Below the pieces are notes generated by a model. The model did not search any database, was not told where the DNA came from, and was given only the letters and a program-made list of their open reading frames with translations. A stretch of 64,000 nt of DNA, taken from contig NZ_FQVX01000001.1 in the NCBI RefSeq assembly GCF_900129495.1, positions 248,001 to 312,000 on the forward strand. Direction: 5' to 3'. Source of the stretch: Geodermatophilus nigrescens. GTDB taxonomy: Bacteria > Actinomycetota > Actinomycetes > Mycobacteriales > Geodermatophilaceae. Positions 1-9,435 of this stretch are shown in pieces. The position numbers and the translations under genes are program-made. Numbering within the stretch: position 1 is the first letter of the stretch; the number at the start of each line of letters is the position of its first letter.

Positions 1-252
1 GACGACGGCTGCATCTGCCGCAAGCCCGCCCCGGGGATGGTGAAGGCGGCCTGCGCCGAGCTCGGCGTCGAGCCCGCGCGCACGGTGGTGATCGGCGACA
101 TCGGCGCCGACGTCGAGGCCGCCGCGGCGGCCGGCGCGTCCGGGATCATGGTCCCGACGCCGGTGACGCGGCGGCAGGAGGTCGCGGCCGCGCCCCGCCG
201 CGCCGCGACCCTGACCGCCGCGGTCGACGACGTCCTGGCCGGCGAGTGGTGA
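1..252 (+). CDS. gmhB: GmhB-type HAD phosphatase, C-terminal fragment
   Basis: The gene enters from the left edge, and only its last 83 codons are visible. The fragment opens with a C-x-C-R-K-P-x-P-G-M block, which combines the zinc-binding cysteines and motif III lysine of HAD-IIIA histidinol/heptose bisphosphate phosphatases. It is followed by a motif IV aspartate region (IGDIGADVEAA). GmhB removes the C7 phosphate of D-glycero-D-manno-heptose 1,7-bisphosphate in the cytosol. The assignment to heptose rather than histidinol rests on the following gmhA, hldE and GT9 genes. The stop overlaps the next start by 4 bases (GTGA), so it belongs to the same operon. The catalytic nucleophile domain lies outside the window. 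Confidence 0.65.
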   Translation, partial: DDGCICRKPAPGMVKAACAELGVEPARTVVIGDIGADVEAAAAAGASGIMVPTPVTRRQEVAAAPRRAATLTAAVDDVLAGEW

Positions 253-1283
253 GCGCCGGCCGCGGCACGGTCCTCGTCGCCCGGCTCGACAACGCCGGCG
301 ACGTCCTCCTGCAGGGCCCGCTGGTGCGGGCGGTCGCCGCGTCCGCCGACCGGGTGGTGTTCCTCGCCGGGCCGGCCGGGGCCGACGCCGCGGCGCTGCT
401 GCCCGGGGTCGACGAGGTGGTGAGCTGGGCCTGCCCGTGGATCCTCGGCGACCCGCCGCCGGTCGACGCCGCCGACCTCGCCGCGTTCACCGCGCGCGTG
501 CGGGCGCTCGCCCCCGACGAGGCCGTCGTCTCCACGTCCTTCCACCAGTCGCCGCTCCCGCTGGCTCTGCTGCTGCGCGCGGCCGGCGTGCCGCGGATCA
601 GCGGCACCAGCGTCGACTACCCCGGCTCGCTGCTCGACGTCCGCCACCGGGTCGGGCAGGACGACGAGGTCGACCTGCCCGAGCCCGAGCGGGCGCTGTC
701 GCTGGCCCGCGCGGCCGGGTTCGACCTGCCCGAGGGCGACGACGGCCGGCTCGCCGTCCGCCGCCCGCTGCCGCCTCCGCCGCACGAGCCCGGCTACGTC
801 GTCCTGCACCCCGGCGCCTCGGTGCCCGCCCGCACCTGGCCCGCCGAGCGCTGCGCGGAGGCGGTCGAGGCGCTCGCCGACGCCGGCCACCGGGTGCTGG
901 TCACCGGCGGGCCGGGGGAGCGGGCACTCACCGCCGCCGTCGCCGGCAGCCGCGGCACCGACCTCGGCGGCGCCACGACGCTGCCGGAGATGGCCGCCCT
1001 GCTCAACGGCGCCGCGGCCGTCGTCGTCGGCAACACCGGCCCGGCGCACCTCGCCGCCGCCGTCGGCACGCCCGTCGTCTCACTGTTCAGCCCGGTCGTG
1101 CCCGCCGCCCGCTGGGCGCCCTACGGCGTGCCCACCGTGCTGCTGGGTGACCAGGACGCCCCCTGCCGCGGCACCCGGGCCCGCGCCTGCCCGGTGCCGG
1201 GCCACCCCTGCCTCTCGTCGGTCACCGCCGCCGACGTCGTGGCCGCCGTCGAGAAGGTGCGCATCGAGAAGGGAAGCGTGTGA
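249..1283 (+). CDS. Glycosyltransferase family 9 (heptosyltransferase-like) protein
   Basis: This is a 344-residue GT-B protein resembling ADP-heptose:LPS heptosyltransferases. The N-terminus carries the [14 protein letters not shown] block typical of GT9 acceptor domains. The C-terminal half contains [24 protein letters not shown] and [20 protein letters not shown], the nucleotide-sugar binding signatures of the family. It probably transfers a heptose from an ADP-sugar to a surface glycan or other acceptor, which cannot be told from sequence. GTG 249 overlaps the upstream stop as GTGA; GTG 246, one codon earlier, is also possible. It overlaps the next gene by 4 bases, so translation is likely coupled through the cluster. 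Confidence 0.85.
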
Positions 1284-2272
1284 AGGTCCTCGTCTGGCAC
1301 GTGCACGGCTCCTGGACGACCGCGTTCCTCGAGGGCCGGCACGAGTACCTGCTGCCCGTCGTGGACGGCCCCGACGGGAGGCGCAGTCCCGACGGGCTGG
1401 GCCGCGCCCGCACCTGGGACTGGCCGGCGTCGGCCCGCGAGGTGACCCCGGAGCAGCTGCGCGAGGAGGACGTCGACGTCGTCGTGCTCCAGCGGGTGCG
1501 CGACCTCGAGCTGGTCCGCGAGTGGCTCGGCCGCGAGCCCGGGCACGACCTGCCCGCGGTGTTCCTCGAGCACAACGCGCCGGGCCTGGAGCCCGGGGAC
1601 GGCCCGGTGCCGCACACCCGCCACCCGCTGGCCGACCGCGACGACATCCCGATCGCGCACGTCACGCACTTCAACCGGCTCTTCTACGACAACGGCCGCG
1701 CCCCGACGACGGTGATCGAGCACGGCATCGTCGACCCCGGCGAGCGCTGGACCGGCGAGCTCGCGCGGGCCGCCGTCGTCACCAACGAGCCGGTCCGCCG
1801 GGGCCGCACCGTCGGCGCGGACCTGCTGCCGGGGCTCGCCGCGGCCGCGCCGGTCGACGTCTTCGGCATGGGGCTGTCCGGGCTGCACGAGCGGCACGGC
1901 CTCGACCCCGACCGGGTCACCCTGTACGACGACCCGCCGCAGGCCGCCATGCACACCGAGCTGGCCCGCCGGCGCGTCTACGTGCACCCGGTGCGCTGGA
2001 CCTCCCTCGGGTTGTCCCTGCTCGAGGCGATGCACCTGGGCATGCCGGTGGTCGCGCTGGCCACCACCGAGGTGGTCGAGGCGGTGCCGGCCGGCGCGGG
2101 CGTCGTCTCCACCCGGCCCGAGGTCCTGTGGGACGCGGTCCGCACCTACCTGGACGACGAGGACGCCGCCCGGCTGGCCGGCAAGGCGGCCCGCGCCGCC
2201 GCGCTGGAGCGCTACGGCCTGGCCCGCTTCCTCGCCGACTGGGACCGGCTCCTCGAGGAGGTCACCCGATGA
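1280..2272 (+). CDS. GT-B fold glycosyltransferase
   Basis: This is a 330-residue protein with a GT4-like C-terminal half. The stretch [19 protein letters not shown] matches the conserved donor-binding glutamate region (E-x7-E type) of retaining GT-B enzymes. The N-terminal half is more divergent and has no signal peptide or membrane segment, so it is probably cytosolic. The GTG start overlaps the previous stop (GTGA), and its own stop overlaps the ATG of the next gene. Its position between a GT9 enzyme and another GT4 enzyme suggests that it adds a sugar to the same glycan. Donor and acceptor are unknown. Confidence 0.75.
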
Positions 2273-3513
2273 GGACGCATCGGCATCCCGGCGCGCCGCT
2301 GCGCATCGACATGGTCAGCGAGCACGCCTCGCCGCTGGCCGCGATCGGCGGGGTCGACGCCGGCGGGCAGAACGTGCACGTCGCCGCGCTGGCGGCGGGC
2401 CTGGCCGCCCGCGGCCACGAGGTCACCGTGCACACCCGCCGCGACGACCCCGGCCTGCCCGACGAGGTGACCACCGACGACGGCTACGTCGTCTCGCACC
2501 TCACCGCCGGCCCCGCCGAGGCGCTGCCCAAGGACGACCTGCTCGGGCACATGCCCGCGCTGGCCGCTGCGCTGCGGGCGCGCTGGGCGGTGCGGCCGCC
2601 CGACGTCGTCCACGCGCACTTCTGGATGAGCGGACTGGCCGCGGTCGAGGCCGCCGGGAGCCTGCTCACCCCCGTGCCGGTGCTGCAGACCTTCCACGCG
2701 CTCGGCTCGGTCAAGCGACGCCACCAGGGCGACGCCGACACCTCGCCGGCGCAGCGCGTGGAGCTGGAGCGGGGCCTGTGCGAGGCGGTCGGCCACGTGG
2801 TGGCCACCTGCAGCGACGAGGTGTTCGAGCTGCGCCGCCTGGGCCTCTCCCGCGACCGCGTCTCGGTCGTCCCCTGCGGCGTCGACACCACCGTCTTCAC
2901 CCCGCGCGGGCCGGTGGCGCCGCGCAGCGGCCGGCCGCGGTTGCTGGTGCTCGGCCGGCTGGTCGAGCGCAAGGGCCAGGAGGACGCCGTCCGCGCGCTG
3001 GCCGCGGTGCCCGACGCGGAGCTCGTCGTCGTCGGCGGCCCGCCGCCCGGCGCCGTCGACGCGGACCCGGAGGTGCGCCGGCTGCGCGAGCTCGCCGGCT
3101 CCCTCGGTGTCGCCGACCGCGTCGTCTTCGCCGGGTCGGTGGCGCGCGACGACGTCCCGGCCTGGATCCGCTCGGCCGACGTCGTCCTGGCCGTGCCCTG
3201 GTACGAGCCATTCGGCATCACCCCGCTGGAGGCGATGGCCTGCGGCCGCCCGGTCGTGGCCACGGCCGTCGGCGGGCTGCAGGACTCCGTCGCCGACGGT
3301 GTCACCGGCGACCTCGTGCCGCCGCGTGACCCGGCCCGGCTCGGCGCGGTCCTCGCCGCGCTGCTGGCCGACGACGCCCGGCGCGCCGCCTACGGCGCGG
3401 CCGGCGTCCGGCGGGCCCGCGCCCGCTACCGGTGGGCCCGCGTGGCCGCCGACACCGAGGCCGTCTACCGGTCGGTCCTCTCCACCCGGCGTCCCGTCGA
3501 GGCCGTCCGATGA
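2269..3513 (+). CDS. GT4 family glycosyltransferase (MshA/sucrose synthase-like)
   Basis: This is a 414-residue protein with both GT-B domains. The N-terminal [20 protein letters not shown] block matches the acceptor domain of the MshA/sucrose-phosphate-synthase group. Also visible are HAHFWMSG, a [12 protein letters not shown] stretch and [19 protein letters not shown], with the donor-binding glutamates. ATG 2269 overlaps the upstream stop as ATGA. A role as the true mycothiol MshA is not favoured, because the gene sits inside a heptose/glycan cluster; a surface-glycan sugar transferase is more likely. The substrate is not predictable. Confidence 0.8.
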
Positions 3514-3533
3514 GCGCCCCAGGAGGCGTCCCG

Positions 3534-4214
3534 ATGAGCTCCGCCCCGTTGTCCGAGGCCCCGCATTCGGCCGGCGAGGTCGTCTCGCCCGACTCGTGCA
3601 CGCACCTGACCGGCCGCGACCACGTCGCCTCGCTGACGCACGCCCTGCGCAGCCTCGACGACTCGGTCGACACCCTCGACCGCTGGGGCGCGCTGCTGGC
3701 CGACGTGCTGTGCGGCGAGTCCCGCGGGCGGCTGCTGGCGGCCGGCAACGGGGGCAGCGCCGCGCAGGCGCAGCACCTCACCGCCGAGCTCGTGGGCCGC
3801 TACCGGGCCGACCGGCCGCCGTTCTCCGCGATCTGCCTGACCGCCGAGACGTCGTCGCTCACCGCGATCGCCAACGACTACCCGGCCGACGAGCTGTTCG
3901 CCCGCCAGGTCGAGGCGCACGGCCGGGCCGGCGACGTCCTGGTGCTGCTGTCGACGTCGGGCCGCTCGCCCAACGCCGTCGCCGCCGCGCGCCGCGCCCG
4001 CGAGTGCGGCATCACGGTCCTGTCGATCACCGGCCCCGCGCCCAACCCGCTGGCCGCGGCCTCCGACGAGGCGGTGTGCATCGACTCCCCGTGGACGGCG
4101 ACCGTGCAGGAGTGCCACCTGGTGGCGCTGCACCTGCTGTGCGCCGCCTTCGACGCCGCGGTGCTGGCCGAGCCCGCCCGGGTGCCGCAGAGCCGGCTCG
4201 GGGTCGCCCGGTGA
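3534..4214 (+). CDS. gmhA: Sedoheptulose-7-phosphate isomerase (GmhA-like SIS protein)
   Basis: This 226-residue SIS-domain enzyme would convert sedoheptulose 7-phosphate to D-glycero-D-manno-heptose 7-phosphate, the first step of the ADP-heptose pathway. GNGGSAAQAQHLTAELVGRY (from residue 71) is the GmhA/DiaA sugar-phosphate loop, and LLSTSGRSPNAVAAA is the second SIS motif. The start is set by a perfect AGGAGG at 3521-3526, seven bases before ATG 3534. An in-frame ATG at 3510 overlaps the previous stop but has no such site. GTG of hldE overlaps its stop. A DiaA-like role is the alternative, but the neighbours favour GmhA. Confidence 0.85.
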   Translation: MSSAPLSEAPHSAGEVVSPDSCTHLTGRDHVASLTHALRSLDDSVDTLDRWGALLADVLCGESRGRLLAAGNGGSAAQAQHLTAELVGRYRADRPPFSAICLTAETSSLTAIANDYPADELFARQVEAHGRAGDVLVLLSTSGRSPNAVAAARRARECGITVLSITGPAPNPLAAASDEAVCIDSPWTATVQECHLVALHLLCAAFDAAVLAEPARVPQSRLGVAR

Positions 4215-5575
4215 AGCCGCTGGTGGTCGTGGGGGACGCCCTCCTCGACGTCGACCTGGTCGGCACCTCCACCCGGCTGACGCCCGACGCGCCGGTGCCG
4301 GTCGTCGAGGACGTCGAGACCCGCGAGCGCCCCGGCGGCGCCGCGCTGGCCGCCGTCATCGCCGCGCAGGCCACCGGCCGGGAGGTCGTGCTCGTCGCGC
4401 CGCTGGCCGACGACGAGGGCGCCGCGCGGCTGCGGGCGCTGCTGGCCGGCCGGGTCCGGCTGGTCGCCGTGCCCGCGACCGGCGGCACCGCGGTCAAGCA
4501 GCGCGTGCGGGTGGGCGACCACTCGGTCGTGCGCATCGACAGCGGCGCGCCGGCGGTCTCCCTCGGCGAGCTGCCGGACGAGGCCCGCGAGGCCATCCGC
4601 GGCGCGGCGGCCGTGCTGGTCGCCGACTACGGCCGCGGCACGACGTCGGACGGGGCGGTGCGGGCGGCGCTGGCCGAGGCCGGCGGGCCGGTGGTCTGGG
4701 ACCCGCACCCGCGCGGCGCCGACCCGGTGCCGAGCGTCCGGCTGGTGACGCCGAACGGCGCCGAGGCCGCCCGGGTCGCGCCGGGCGTCGAGGGCGACGG
4801 GCTGGCCGCGGTCGGCGCCCGCGCCGAGGCGCTCATCCGGCACTGGGGCGTGGGCGCGGTCGTGGTCACCCTCGGCGCGCGCGGCGCGCTGCTGTCCTAC
4901 GGCGAGGGCGCGCCGATGGTCGTGCCCGCGGTGCCCGTGACCGGCGGCGACCCGTGTGGCGCCGGCGACTCCTTCGCCGCCGCGGCCGCCCTCGCGCTGG
5001 CCGACGGCGCGGTGACCGGGGAGGCGGTGGCCGCGGCCGTCGCGTTCGCCGGGCGCTTCGTCGCCGCCGGCGGGGCCACCGCCTGGGACGCCTCCCCGGT
5101 GCGCGAGCCCAACGTGGCCGCGGAGGACGGCGTCTCGGCGCTGCTGGCGCGCGTGCGCAACGCGGGCGGCACCGTGGTGGCCACCGGCGGCTGCTTCGAC
5201 CTGCTGCACGCCGGGCACGTGGCCACGCTGCGCGCCGCCCGCGGGCTCGGCGACTGCCTCGTCGTGTGCATCAACTCCGACGACTCGGTGCGCCGGCTCA
5301 AGGGCCCCTCCCGGCCGCTGGTGACCGCCGCCGACCGCGCGCGGGTGCTCGAGGCGCTGGAGTTCGTCGACGCCGTCGTGGTCTTCGGCGAGGACACCCC
5401 CGCGCAGGTGCTCGACCGGCTGCGGCCCGACGTGTGGGCCAAGGGCGGCGACTACGCCGGCGCCGACCTGCCCGAGGCCGCGGTGCTGCGGCAGTGGGGC
5501 GGGCAGGCCGTCGTCCTGCCGTACCTGGACGGCCACTCGACCACCGCCCTGGTCGAGCGCTCCCGCGTGTGGTGA
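4211..5575 (+). CDS. hldE: Bifunctional heptose-7-phosphate kinase / heptose-1-phosphate adenylyltransferase
   Basis: This is a 454-residue fusion. Residues 1 to about 300 form a PfkB-family kinase (PGGAA near residue 42 and the catalytic GAGD at about 250-253). Residues about 320-454 form a cytidylyltransferase-like domain with the HAGH motif at 333-336 and LKGPSRPL. This domain order is that of HldE (RfaE), which phosphorylates heptose 7-phosphate at C1 and adenylylates the product to ADP-heptose. GTG 4211 overlaps the gmhA stop. With gmhA and the gmhB fragment, the pathway to ADP-D-glycero-D-manno-heptose is complete. No HldD epimerase is seen in the window. Confidence 0.9.
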   Translation: MKPLVVVGDALLDVDLVGTSTRLTPDAPVPVVEDVETRERPGGAALAAVIAAQATGREVVLVAPLADDEGAARLRALLAGRVRLVAVPATGGTAVKQRVRVGDHSVVRIDSGAPAVSLGELPDEAREAIRGAAAVLVADYGRGTTSDGAVRAALAEAGGPVVWDPHPRGADPVPSVRLVTPNGAEAARVAPGVEGDGLAAVGARAEALIRHWGVGAVVVTLGARGALLSYGEGAPMVVPAVPVTGGDPCGAGDSFAAAAALALADGAVTGEAVAAAVAFAGRFVAAGGATAWDASPVREPNVAAEDGVSALLARVRNAGGTVVATGGCFDLLHAGHVATLRAARGLGDCLVVCINSDDSVRRLKGPSRPLVTAADRARVLEALEFVDAVVVFGEDTPAQVLDRLRPDVWAKGGDYAGADLPEAAVLRQWGGQAVVLPYLDGHSTTALVERSRVW

Positions 5576-6561
5576 AGGACCCCCTCGCCCCCCACCGCTC
5601 GCAGGCTCGCGACGGGCCCCTGCGAGGGGGCCGTTCCGGCCGTGCCACTGCGGTCGTCCTGCGGCCGCTGGGGCTCGGTGACCTGCTCACCGGCGTCCCG
5701 GCGATCCGCGCGGTGCGGGCGGCCGTGCCCGGCCACCGGCTGGTGCTGGCCACGACGGCCGCGCTCGCGCCGCTGGCCGGGCTGGTCGACGCCGTCGACG
5801 AGGTGCTGCCCGCGCGCGAGCTCGAGCCGCTGGACTGGCCCGGGCCGCCGCCGGAGCTCGCCGTCGACCTGCACGGCAAGGGGCCGGCGTCGCACGTCGT
5901 CGTCGCGGGCCTGGACCCGGCGCGGCTGCTGACCTTCGCCAGCCCCGGCTACCCCGGCCCGACGTGGTACCCCGACGAGCACGAGGTCCGGCGCTGGTGC
6001 CGGCTGGTGTCCGAGGGCCTCGGGGTCGACGCGGACCCCGACGCGCTCGACCTCGCCGTCCCGCCCGTGCCCCCGGCGGTGCGCGGGGCGGCGCTCGTGC
6101 ACCCGGGCGCGGCGTTCCCCGGGCGGCGCTGGCCGCCGGACCGCTTCGCCGCCGTCGCGCGGGAGCTGGCCGCCGCCGGCCACGACGTGCGGGTCACCGG
6201 CGGGCCGGCCGAGCGCGAGCTGGCCTGCGCCGTGGCCGAGGCGGCCGGGCTGGGGGAGGACGCCGTCCTCGCCGGGCGCACGTCCACGCTGGAGCTGGCC
6301 GCCACCGTCGCCGCCGCCCGGGTGGTCGTGTGCGGCGACACCGGCGTCGCGCACCTCGCGACCGCCTACCGCCGCCCGTCGGTGGTGCTGTTCGGGCCGG
6401 TGTCGCCGGCGCTGTGGGGCCCGCCGCCGCGGCCCCACCACGTGGTGCTGTGGCACGGCGACGGCACCGGCGACCCGTGGGGCACCGAGCTGGACCCGGC
6501 CCTCGCGCGGATCACCGTCGGCGAGGTGACCGCCGCCCTGGAGCAGGTCCTCCAGCGCTGA
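5572..6561 (+). CDS. Glycosyltransferase family 9 protein, second copy
   Basis: This is a 329-residue GT9 enzyme with VVLRPLGLGDLLTGVPAIRAV near the N-terminus, VHPGAAFPGRRWP, VTGGPAERELA, and GDTGVAHLATAYRRPSVVLF in the donor domain. It is a paralogue of the 249-1283 gene and is probably another heptosyltransferase of the same pathway. The only plausible start is GTG 5572, overlapping the hldE stop (GTGA). This gives about 24 residues ahead of the conserved GT9 N-terminus, and those residues are encoded by a repeat element (5575-5637). It is the last gene of the cluster and is followed by a strong hairpin. Confidence 0.85.
   Translation: MKDPLAPHRSQARDGPLRGGRSGRATAVVLRPLGLGDLLTGVPAIRAVRAAVPGHRLVLATTAALAPLAGLVDAVDEVLPARELEPLDWPGPPPELAVDLHGKGPASHVVVAGLDPARLLTFASPGYPGPTWYPDEHEVRRWCRLVSEGLGVDADPDALDLAVPPVPPAVRGAALVHPGAAFPGRRWPPDRFAAVARELAAAGHDVRVTGGPAERELACAVAEAAGLGEDAVLAGRTSTLELAATVAAARVVVCGDTGVAHLATAYRRPSVVLFGPVSPALWGPPPRPHHVVLWHGDGTGDPWGTELDPALARITVGEVTAALEQVLQR
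5575..5637. repeat. Dispersed inverted-repeat element, copy 1
   Basis: This is a 63-base C/G-rich element beginning AAGGACCCC. It is also found, diverged, at 48739-48797. Its ends form an imperfect stem: 5577-5588 pairs with 5622-5632, leaving A5579 bulged. The second copy has the same bulged A but a different stem sequence that still pairs (CTCGC/GCGAG here, GCTGC/GCAGC there). This copy lies inside the 5' end of the second GT9 gene. Confidence 0.65.
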
Positions 6562-8457: not shown

Positions 8458-9435
8458 TCAGCCGACGCGGGTCGCGGACTCCTGGAGCCGGGCGGCGAAC
8501 CAGTCAACCGTGCGGCGCAGCCCCTCCTCGGAGGGGACCGTCGGCCGCCAGCCGAGCAGCTCCTCGGCGCGGCGGGTGTCCGGTCGGCGGACCTTCGGGT
8601 CGTCGACGGGCAGGTCGACGAACTCGACGTCGGACGTGGAGCCGGTGAGCTCGCGGATCCACTCGGCCAGCCGGAGCATCGACAGCTCGTCGGGGTTGCC
8701 GATGTTGACCGGGCCGGGCTGGTCGGAGAAGGCCAGCGCGAGGATGCCGCGCACGGTGTCGTCGACGTAGCAGATCGACCGGGTCTGCGAGCCGTCGCCG
8801 GCGACGGTCAGCGGGCGCCCGGCCAGCGCCTGGCCCACGAAGGCGGGGATGGCGCGGCCGTCGTCGGCGCGCATGCGGGGGCCGTAGGTGTTGAAGATCC
8901 GCACGATCCCGGTGTCGGTGCCCTTCGACGTCCGGTAGGCGGTGGTCATGGCCTCGCTGAAGCGCTTCGCCTCGTCGTAGACCCCGCGCGGGCCGACCGG
9001 GTTGACGTTGCCCCAGTACTCCTCGGGCTGCGGGTGCACCAGCGGGTCGCCGTAGACCTCGGAGGTGGAGGCGAGCACGTACCGGGCGCCCTTCTCGTGC
9101 GCCAGGCCGAGGGTGTGCAGGGTGCCGAGGCTGCCGACCTTGAGCGTCTCGATCGGCATCCTCAGGTAGTCCAGCGGGCTGGCCGGCGAGGCGAAGTGCA
9201 GCACCAGGTCGACGTCGCCGGGGACGTGCACGAAGTCGGTGACGTCGCAGCGCACCAGCCGGAAGCCGGGGTGCTCCATGAGGTGGACGACGTTCTCCGG
9301 TGAGCCGGTGAGGAAGTTGTCGAGGCAGACGACCTCGACGCCGCGGTCGAGCAGGTGCTCGCAGAGGTGGGAGCCGAGGAAGCCGGCGCCGCCGGTCACC
9401 ACCGCCCGCCGGATCGTCCGTGCCGCGTGCACCAT
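8458..9435 (-). CDS. NAD-dependent UDP-glucuronate decarboxylase-like SDR
   Basis: This is a 325-residue extended short-chain dehydrogenase. The N-terminal [19 protein letters not shown] is the Rossmann NAD-binding loop. [20 protein letters not shown] and [11 protein letters not shown] (catalytic Y-x3-K) are hallmarks of UDP-xylose synthase (UXS). UXS oxidises and decarboxylates UDP-glucuronate to UDP-xylose in the cytosol. The sequence is not HldD-like, so it does not complete the L,D-heptose branch, though it may feed a pentose or related sugar to the nearby glycosyltransferases. It is a single transcription unit with a GGAG site upstream of ATG 9435. A related 4,6-dehydratase activity is the alternative. 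Confidence 0.8.

What the first reader, a model, noticed from the sequence alone, without database searches (positions are those of the whole stretch)
1..6561. ADP-heptose pathway with two GT9 and two GT-B transferases in a presumably monoderm actinobacterium
The sequence shows gmhB (end), GT9, GT-B, GT4, gmhA, bifunctional hldE and a second GT9, nearly all joined by 4-base overlaps. In E. coli the same enzymes make heptose for LPS. Here no LPS genes are visible and the genome looks actinobacterial, so the heptose probably goes into a surface glycan, a glycolipid or a secreted glycoconjugate. No HldD epimerase is visible, which suggests that the D,D-heptose form is used directly. ADP-heptose is also an innate-immune agonist in Gram-negatives.
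Basis: partly seen in the sequence, partly recalled or inferred. Interest (0 to 1): 0.72.

Follow-up and report, generated by a model that had tools for sequence, protein, structure and literature searches.

The report
Actinobacterial heptose glycan gene cluster
A relative of Geodermatophilus carries a tightly packed gene set for making a rare seven-carbon sugar and, very probably, putting it on the cell surface; it looks like the local form of a Streptomyces operon that vancomycin switches on and whose product is described only as a putative cell wall glycan.

Summary
Six genes in window 246-6561, plus one that starts upstream and ends at 252, form a packed block: GT2-GmhB fusion, GT9, GT-B, GT4, GmhA, HldE, GT9. 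The host is close to Geodermatophilus telluris (HldE 94% identical). No LpxC, and no HldD above cut-off, was found, so NDP-D,D-heptose without LPS is well supported.

It is not peculiar to this strain. HldE was found in 83 of 96 family genomes and 76 of 296 class genomes sampled. Elsewhere in the class the block often sits with a UDP-xylose synthase and a carbamoyltransferase. That matches the printed make-up of the S. coelicolor cwg operon (SCO6179-6190), vancomycin-induced and partly sigma-E dependent. I read this locus as the Geodermatophilaceae form of cwg; S. coelicolor sequence itself was not compared.

New here: (1) 71 of 71 crown-family HldE loci have His where 56 of 68 other loci have the Arg linked in print to CTP/UTP use; (2) a 19-bp element about 5.5 kb upstream of hldE occurs once in each of the 74 sampled family genomes with crown-type HldE and in none of the other 22. 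The glycan's structure and anchor remain unknown.

The parts
1..252 (+). C-terminal part of the GmhB (HAD-IIIA phosphatase) half of a GT2-GmhB fusion; the gene starts about 1.24 kb before the window
   Evidence: L009:10762-12252; Pfam GT2 and HAD; best NCBIfam match heptose 1,7-bisphosphate 7-phosphatase, 111 bits, cut-off 178
246..1283 (+). GT9 glycosyltransferase a (heptosyltransferase-like); start may be 249
   Evidence: PF01075 E 8.5e-25; nearest solved structure 3tov, E 3.2e-11
1280..2272 (+). GT-B glycosyltransferase (Glycos_transf_1)
   Evidence: PF00534 E 7.5e-10
2269..3513 (+). GT4 glycosyltransferase, best NCBIfam match MshA but far below its cut-off
   Evidence: PF00534, PF13439; TIGR03449 228.6 vs 462.5 bits
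3510..4214 (+). GmhA, sedoheptulose 7-phosphate isomerase
   Evidence: SIS_2 E 1.5e-22; TIGR00441 147 vs 209 bits; phosphoheptose isomerase 5i01, E 1.3e-37
4211..5575 (+). HldE, heptose 7-phosphate kinase and heptose 1-phosphate nucleotidyltransferase
   Evidence: TIGR02199 above cut-off, 184 vs 181.5; TIGR02198 129.8 vs 345; only place above the TIGR02199 cut-off in the genome; conserved motifs
5521..5544 (+). Motif YLDGHSTT of HldE (His at the position where the published motif has Arg)
   Evidence: His in 71 of 71 crown loci, Arg in 56 of 68 others; motif from PMC11573728
5572..6561 (+). GT9 glycosyltransferase b (heptosyltransferase-like)
   Evidence: PF01075 E 1.1e-27; E. coli heptosyltransferase II 1psw, E 6e-13
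8458..9435 (-). UDP-xylose synthase (UDP-glucuronate decarboxylase) on the other strand; probable partner gene, found in 26 of 40 class loci outside the family
   Evidence: 2b69 E 1.1e-104; neighbourhood

Best explanation
The locus is the Geodermatophilaceae form of the actinobacterial cwg (cell wall glycan) operon. [quoted passage not shown] With no HldD the D,D form is used. The two GT9 enzymes transfer heptose, and the GT2, GT-B and GT4 enzymes add other sugars (possibly xylose, from the nearby UDP-xylose synthase) to an acceptor that ends in the cell envelope. Shown: gene content, order, conservation, no LpxC and no HldD found. Inferred: co-transcription, every enzymatic activity, the nucleotide, the acceptor and the location of the product.
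For: Families and motifs; colinear block in 69 of 80 named loci; all eight domains in 21 and a five-domain core in 35 of 40 class loci outside the family; two Streptomyces loci, L092 and L095, have UDP-xylose synthase, carbamoyltransferase, GT2, GmhB, GT9, GT-B, GT4, GmhA, HldE, GT9 in that order, which fits the printed cwg products, cwgH phosphoheptose isomerase and cwgI bifunctional synthase/transferase (PMC5839063 passages; PMC6767563 passages); no LpxC; no HldD.
Against: S. coelicolor cwg sequences were not compared. In the crown family the carbamoyltransferase and the SDR seen beside many class blocks are not beside this one; the genome has a 70%-identical carbamoyltransferase on another contig and only distant SDRs. 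No sigma-E-type promoter was found in 55 crown upstream regions, but the pattern also missed the 5 Streptomyces-type loci tried, so this says little. Three of four pathway models are below curated cut-off. No export or wall-attachment gene was identified. No heptose is reported in the family's sugar lists that I saw (passages).
Confidence: 0.72

Rival explanations
1. The heptose goes into a secreted small molecule or a glycolipid rather than a wall glycan, as in the antibiotic septacidin.
For: NDP-heptose feeds septacidin in Streptomyces (PMC11461863, part 1 of 2 seen). The GT4 resembles MshA, which glycosylates an inositol phosphate (acceptor recalled).
Against: Conservation in 74 of 96 family genomes at about 79-94% identity in HldE is unlike a strain-specific metabolite; no scaffold-building gene was identified in the block.
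Confidence: 0.18
2. The enzymes have drifted to another sugar and no heptose is made.
For: GmhA, GmhB and the HldE kinase score below the NCBIfam cut-offs.
Against: Isomerase, kinase, phosphatase and nucleotidyltransferase families of one pathway plus two GT9 enzymes keep company across genera; the nucleotidyltransferase passes its cut-off; GAGD and HAGH motifs are invariant in eight aligned HldE.
Confidence: 0.06
3. It is a remnant of, or feeds, an LPS-like outer-membrane glycolipid.
For: GT9 and GmhA/HldE are the LPS inner-core enzymes of Gram-negatives.
Against: No LpxC match in a 99.8% complete genome, while the control search rings in 4 of 14 known genomes.
Confidence: 0.02

Closest known systems
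cwg operon of Streptomyces coelicolor (SCO6179-6190)
   Same: Predicted heptose enzymes and several glycosyltransferases in the same order as judged from two other Streptomyces loci and the printed product names
   Different: Here GT2 and GmhB are fused; carbamoyltransferase not adjacent; UDP-xylose synthase downstream on the other strand instead of first gene; a different upstream element and no sigma-E-type site detected
NDP-heptose biosynthetic enzymes across kingdoms (Tang et al. 2024, known here through PMC11461863 and PMC11573728)
   Same: Isomerase, kinase/nucleotidyltransferase and phosphatase set for NDP-D,D-heptose; didomain HldE
   Different: His, not Arg, at the motif position tied to use of CTP and UTP
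Gram-negative LPS inner-core heptose pathway (E. coli GmhA, HldE, GmhB, HldD, WaaC/WaaF)
   Same: GmhA, HldE, GmhB and GT9 families
   Different: No HldD, no LpxC; extra GT2, GT-B and GT4; fused GT2-GmhB
Septacidin heptose pathway of Streptomyces
   Same: NDP-heptose made in a monoderm actinobacterium
   Different: A natural-product pathway; no scaffold gene identified here, and the block is conserved across a family

Membership tests
NDP-heptose biosynthesis | GmhA, HldE (kinase and nucleotidyltransferase) and GmhB encoded together | tested here: met
   three of the four activities are below the curated NCBIfam cut-offs, the nucleotidyltransferase above
NDP-heptose biosynthesis | Enzymatic production of NDP-heptose | not testable with these tools
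   Needs an assay
L,D-heptose (LPS) branch | HldD epimerase | tested here: not met
   Own genome best 120 bits vs cut-off 274.6; 0 of 296 class genomes above cut-off
LPS biosynthesis | Lipid A enzyme LpxC | tested here: not met
   0 matches in the own genome; controls ring in 4 of 14
Promiscuous nucleotidyltransferase (STTR5 type) | Arg at position 5 of (F/L)XXGRSTT | tested here: not met
   YLDGHSTT; definition; Arg is said not to be strictly necessary for promiscuity
cwg operon | GT2, GmhB, GT9, GT-B, GT4, GmhA, HldE in this order | tested here: met
   Against Streptomyces loci L092 and L095 and printed product names; S. coelicolor sequence not available
cwg operon | UDP-xylose synthase-like first gene and adjacent carbamoyltransferase | tested here: not met
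   Synthase is present but downstream on the other strand; carbamoyltransferase is on another contig
cwg operon | sigma-E promoter and induction by vancomycin | tested here: inconclusive
   Pattern absent from 55 crown upstream regions but also missed in 5 of 5 Streptomyces-type loci; induction not testable

The most novel reading that the evidence does not exclude
Many monoderm actinobacteria share a heptose-containing envelope glycan made by cwg-type operons, in Streptomyces induced by cell-wall antibiotics. In the crown Geodermatophilaceae it was rewired once: the block parted from its carbamoyltransferase, HldE lost the Arg for CTP/UTP use and became ADP-heptose specific, and expression came under a dedicated single-site upstream element.
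Probability: 0.3. Interest if true: 0.65.

Novelty: new variant of a known kind. Interest (0 to 1): 0.5.

Why it matters
In the cwg passages I saw, the operon is a marker of envelope stress in Streptomyces and its product only a putative cell wall glycan. Seeing it as a heptose block shared by many actinobacterial genera gives a chemical prediction (D-glycero-D-manno-heptose, perhaps with xylose and carbamoyl groups) that one hydrolysis experiment can test. It also offers a destination for the NDP-heptose of monoderms, whose biological roles PMC11573728 calls largely open.

Tried and rejected
LPS destination: rejected, no LpxC. A hidden HldD: rejected, the best SDR in the own genome is far below cut-off, and the SDR at 8458-9435 is nearest to UDP-glucuronate decarboxylases. 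MarR-family gene as obligate partner of the 19-bp element: not supported; 13 of 65 element-bearing loci show no such gene in the fetched stretch (L069 of these is cut by its contig end, L147 repeats L053). Element as a known RNA: no Rfam match up to E 5 in 301 bases around it. The SDR found near hldE in 34 of 40 class loci: only distant relatives in the own genome (best E-value hit 35% identity). sigma-E promoter: not found, but the pattern failed its own positive control. Neighbours of the distant carbamoyltransferase were listed but not identified. Heptose chemistry of the family in print: searches gave none; an unidentified sugar in Klenkia marina could not be tied to this locus. PMC7725333 (passages) reports its own heptose search as a false negative, so it does not help. 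The gene-calling script picked wrong frames in places; counts come from tblastn. An earlier count said two commentaries were read whole; I saw part 1 of 2 of each. My note places the element roughly; one search has the exact place.
Full report
WHAT IS THERE. The window is bases 248001-312000 of contig C2 of a 4.74-Mb genome, 99.8% complete. Its HldE is 94% identical to that of Geodermatophilus telluris and falls among Geodermatophilus in a tree of 133 HldE rows. The block reads GT2-GmhB fusion (496 aa from its ATG; ends at window 252), GT9, GT-B, GT4, GmhA, HldE, GT9, all on the + strand, with 4-base overlaps at five junctions and 7 or 4 bases at the first. Scores are mixed: each protein has a Pfam match above cut-off; in NCBIfam, of the pathway models only the HldE nucleotidyltransferase domain passes (184 vs 181.5 bits), while the HldE kinase, GmhA and GmhB are below. 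GAGD in the kinase domain and HAGH in the nucleotidyltransferase domain are invariant in eight aligned HldE (that they are catalytic is recalled). GmhB carries a Cys-x-His...Cys-x-Cys run (recalled as typical of the beta-type enzyme), and the beta model scores 111 bits against 41 for the alpha model.

NOT LPS, NO HldD. LpxC has no match in the genome; the control rings in 4 of 14 known genomes. The best HldD-model match scores 120 bits against a cut-off of 274.6, and none of 296 class genomes has one above cut-off. So D,D-heptose is the expected product.

DISTRIBUTION. HldE: 83 of 96 family genomes at E <= 1e-30 (77 of 85 good ones; 11 of 12 genera), and 76 of 296 class genomes at E <= 1e-25, the own one included (39 of 106 genera). 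Of the 83, I class 74 as crown type and 9 as a more distant type or fragment (G003, G005, G008, G018, G031, G036, G040, G050, G068); 13 have no match. Among the 80 best named loci (225 relatives were found, the list is biased to close ones) the eight domains are colinear in 69; two of the other 11 (L047, L061) are cut by contig ends. GT2 and GmhB are in one open frame in 70, separate in 4 (two of them Streptomyces), and one or both not found in 6. I fetched 40 of the 75 other class genomes with a match, one stretch each, none of this family. In these 40: HldE 40, GT9a 40, GT4 40, GmhB 38, GmhA 37, GT-B 36, GT9b 36, GT2 27; SDR 34, carbamoyltransferase 26, UDP-xylose synthase 26; all eight domains in 21, the five-domain core GmhB-GT9-GT4-GmhA-HldE in 35; GT2 and GmhB fused in 19, separate in 7, one missing in 14 (some stretches end at contig ends, and the two GT9 queries can cross-match).

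WHICH KNOWN SYSTEM. In Streptomyces loci L092 and L095 the order is UDP-xylose synthase, carbamoyltransferase, GT2, GmhB, GT9, GT-B, GT4, GmhA, HldE, GT9. This fits the printed names of S. coelicolor cwg: transferases cwgB, cwgC, cwgE, cwgG, cwgJ, dehydratase cwgD, phosphoheptose isomerase cwgH, bifunctional synthase/transferase cwgI (PMC5839063, passages). [quoted passage not shown] 2002, cited there, not read). PMC13011467 (passages) also treats it as a cell wall operon; PMC3123327 only cites the 2002 paper. The word heptose does not occur in PMC5839063 or PMC6767563 outside the compound 'phosphoheptose'. I did not have S. coelicolor sequence to compare. Heptose in actinobacteria is itself known: septacidin, and the survey of Tang et al. 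2024 as told in PMC11461863 and PMC11573728 (part 1 of 2 of each).

HOW IT PROBABLY WORKS. GmhA, HldE kinase, GmhB and HldE nucleotidyltransferase make NDP-D,D-heptose; the two GT9 enzymes transfer it; the GT2, GT-B and GT4 enzymes add other sugars. The UDP-xylose synthase at 8458-9435 (nearest solved structure UDP-glucuronate decarboxylase 1, 2b69, E 1.1e-104) makes xylose a candidate. The genome also has a carbamoyltransferase 70% identical to that of L095, on contig C6. Activities, acceptor and location are inferred.

NEW OBSERVATION 1: THE NUCLEOTIDE MOTIF. Arg at position 5 of (F/L)XXGRSTT is linked in print to use of CTP and UTP (PMC11461863 adds that it is not strictly necessary). Here the motif is YLDGHSTT. 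Of 140 loci, L129 gave no residue. Of 78 with at least 80% identity in this domain, 71 have His and 7 Arg; of the 61 others, Arg 49, Tyr 4, Gln 4, His 3, Trp 1. With those, L129 and one short row left out, the tree has 133 rows: the crown is one clade of 67 rows, all His (SH-aLRT 99), and two Arg-bearing family loci are its sister (support 93 for the joint group). The His label needs four changes on the whole tree, so it also arose elsewhere (quick method, many weak forks). Whether His changes specificity is untested.

NEW OBSERVATION 2: A SINGLE-COPY UPSTREAM ELEMENT. In 22 of the 56 upstream regions I had, aligned, CTTCAAGCCCGTAGTGTTT stands out in otherwise poorly conserved DNA; in the own genome it starts 50 bases before the ATG of the fusion gene. 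The own genome has it once with up to 3 mismatches. With up to 2 mismatches, 74 of 96 family genomes have it, once each, and the reversed-pattern control finds none. These are exactly the 74 with crown-type HldE (the nine distant types were left out of that list); in 69 it lies on the same contig and strand, 5.36-5.69 kb upstream of hldE, in 5 on another contig. TAGTGT fits an actinobacterial -10 (TANNNT, recalled); the eleven conserved bases before it would lie in the spacer and could be a regulator site. A MarR-family gene lies beside it in 52 of 65 element-bearing loci, 22-211 bases away, and was not found in 13.

VERDICT. Observation confirmed, interpretation partly supported. The block is a variant of a known kind of operon with an unidentified product and two lineage-specific features worth testing. 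What is in print was judged, in an open-access library only.

Noticed in passing
L009:10712-10730 (G000:C2:246712-246730), 1.29 kb before the window: 19-bp element CTTCAAGCCCGTAGTGTTT, once per genome in 74 of 96 family genomes and always those with crown-type HldE.
   Followed up: partly
L009:10133-10630: MarR-family regulator gene just upstream of the fusion gene, same strand; beside the element in 52 of 65 loci.
   Followed up: partly
family genus g4 (G003, G014, G022, G029, G036, G040, G045, G050, G054): No crown-type block in this genus: 4 of its 9 sampled genomes carry a more distant HldE with an Arg motif and an adjacent carbamoyltransferase, 5 have no match.
   Followed up: partly
L105, L110, L116, L125, L137, L138, L154, L157: A second, more distant HldE-like gene (about 35-41% identity) within the same 17-20 kb stretch as the main one; its role is unknown.
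   Followed up: no
L065: Record titled 'UNVERIFIED_ORG: Bacillus sp. AZ43' carries the block and falls inside the Geodermatophilaceae clade; probably a mislabelled record.
   Followed up: no
window:6680-8326 (-): VWA-domain protein convergent with the last GT9 gene, conserved next to the block in most of the named Geodermatophilaceae loci.
   Followed up: no
window:42077-42164 (-): tRNA-like hit with an undefined two-base anticodon.
   Followed up: no
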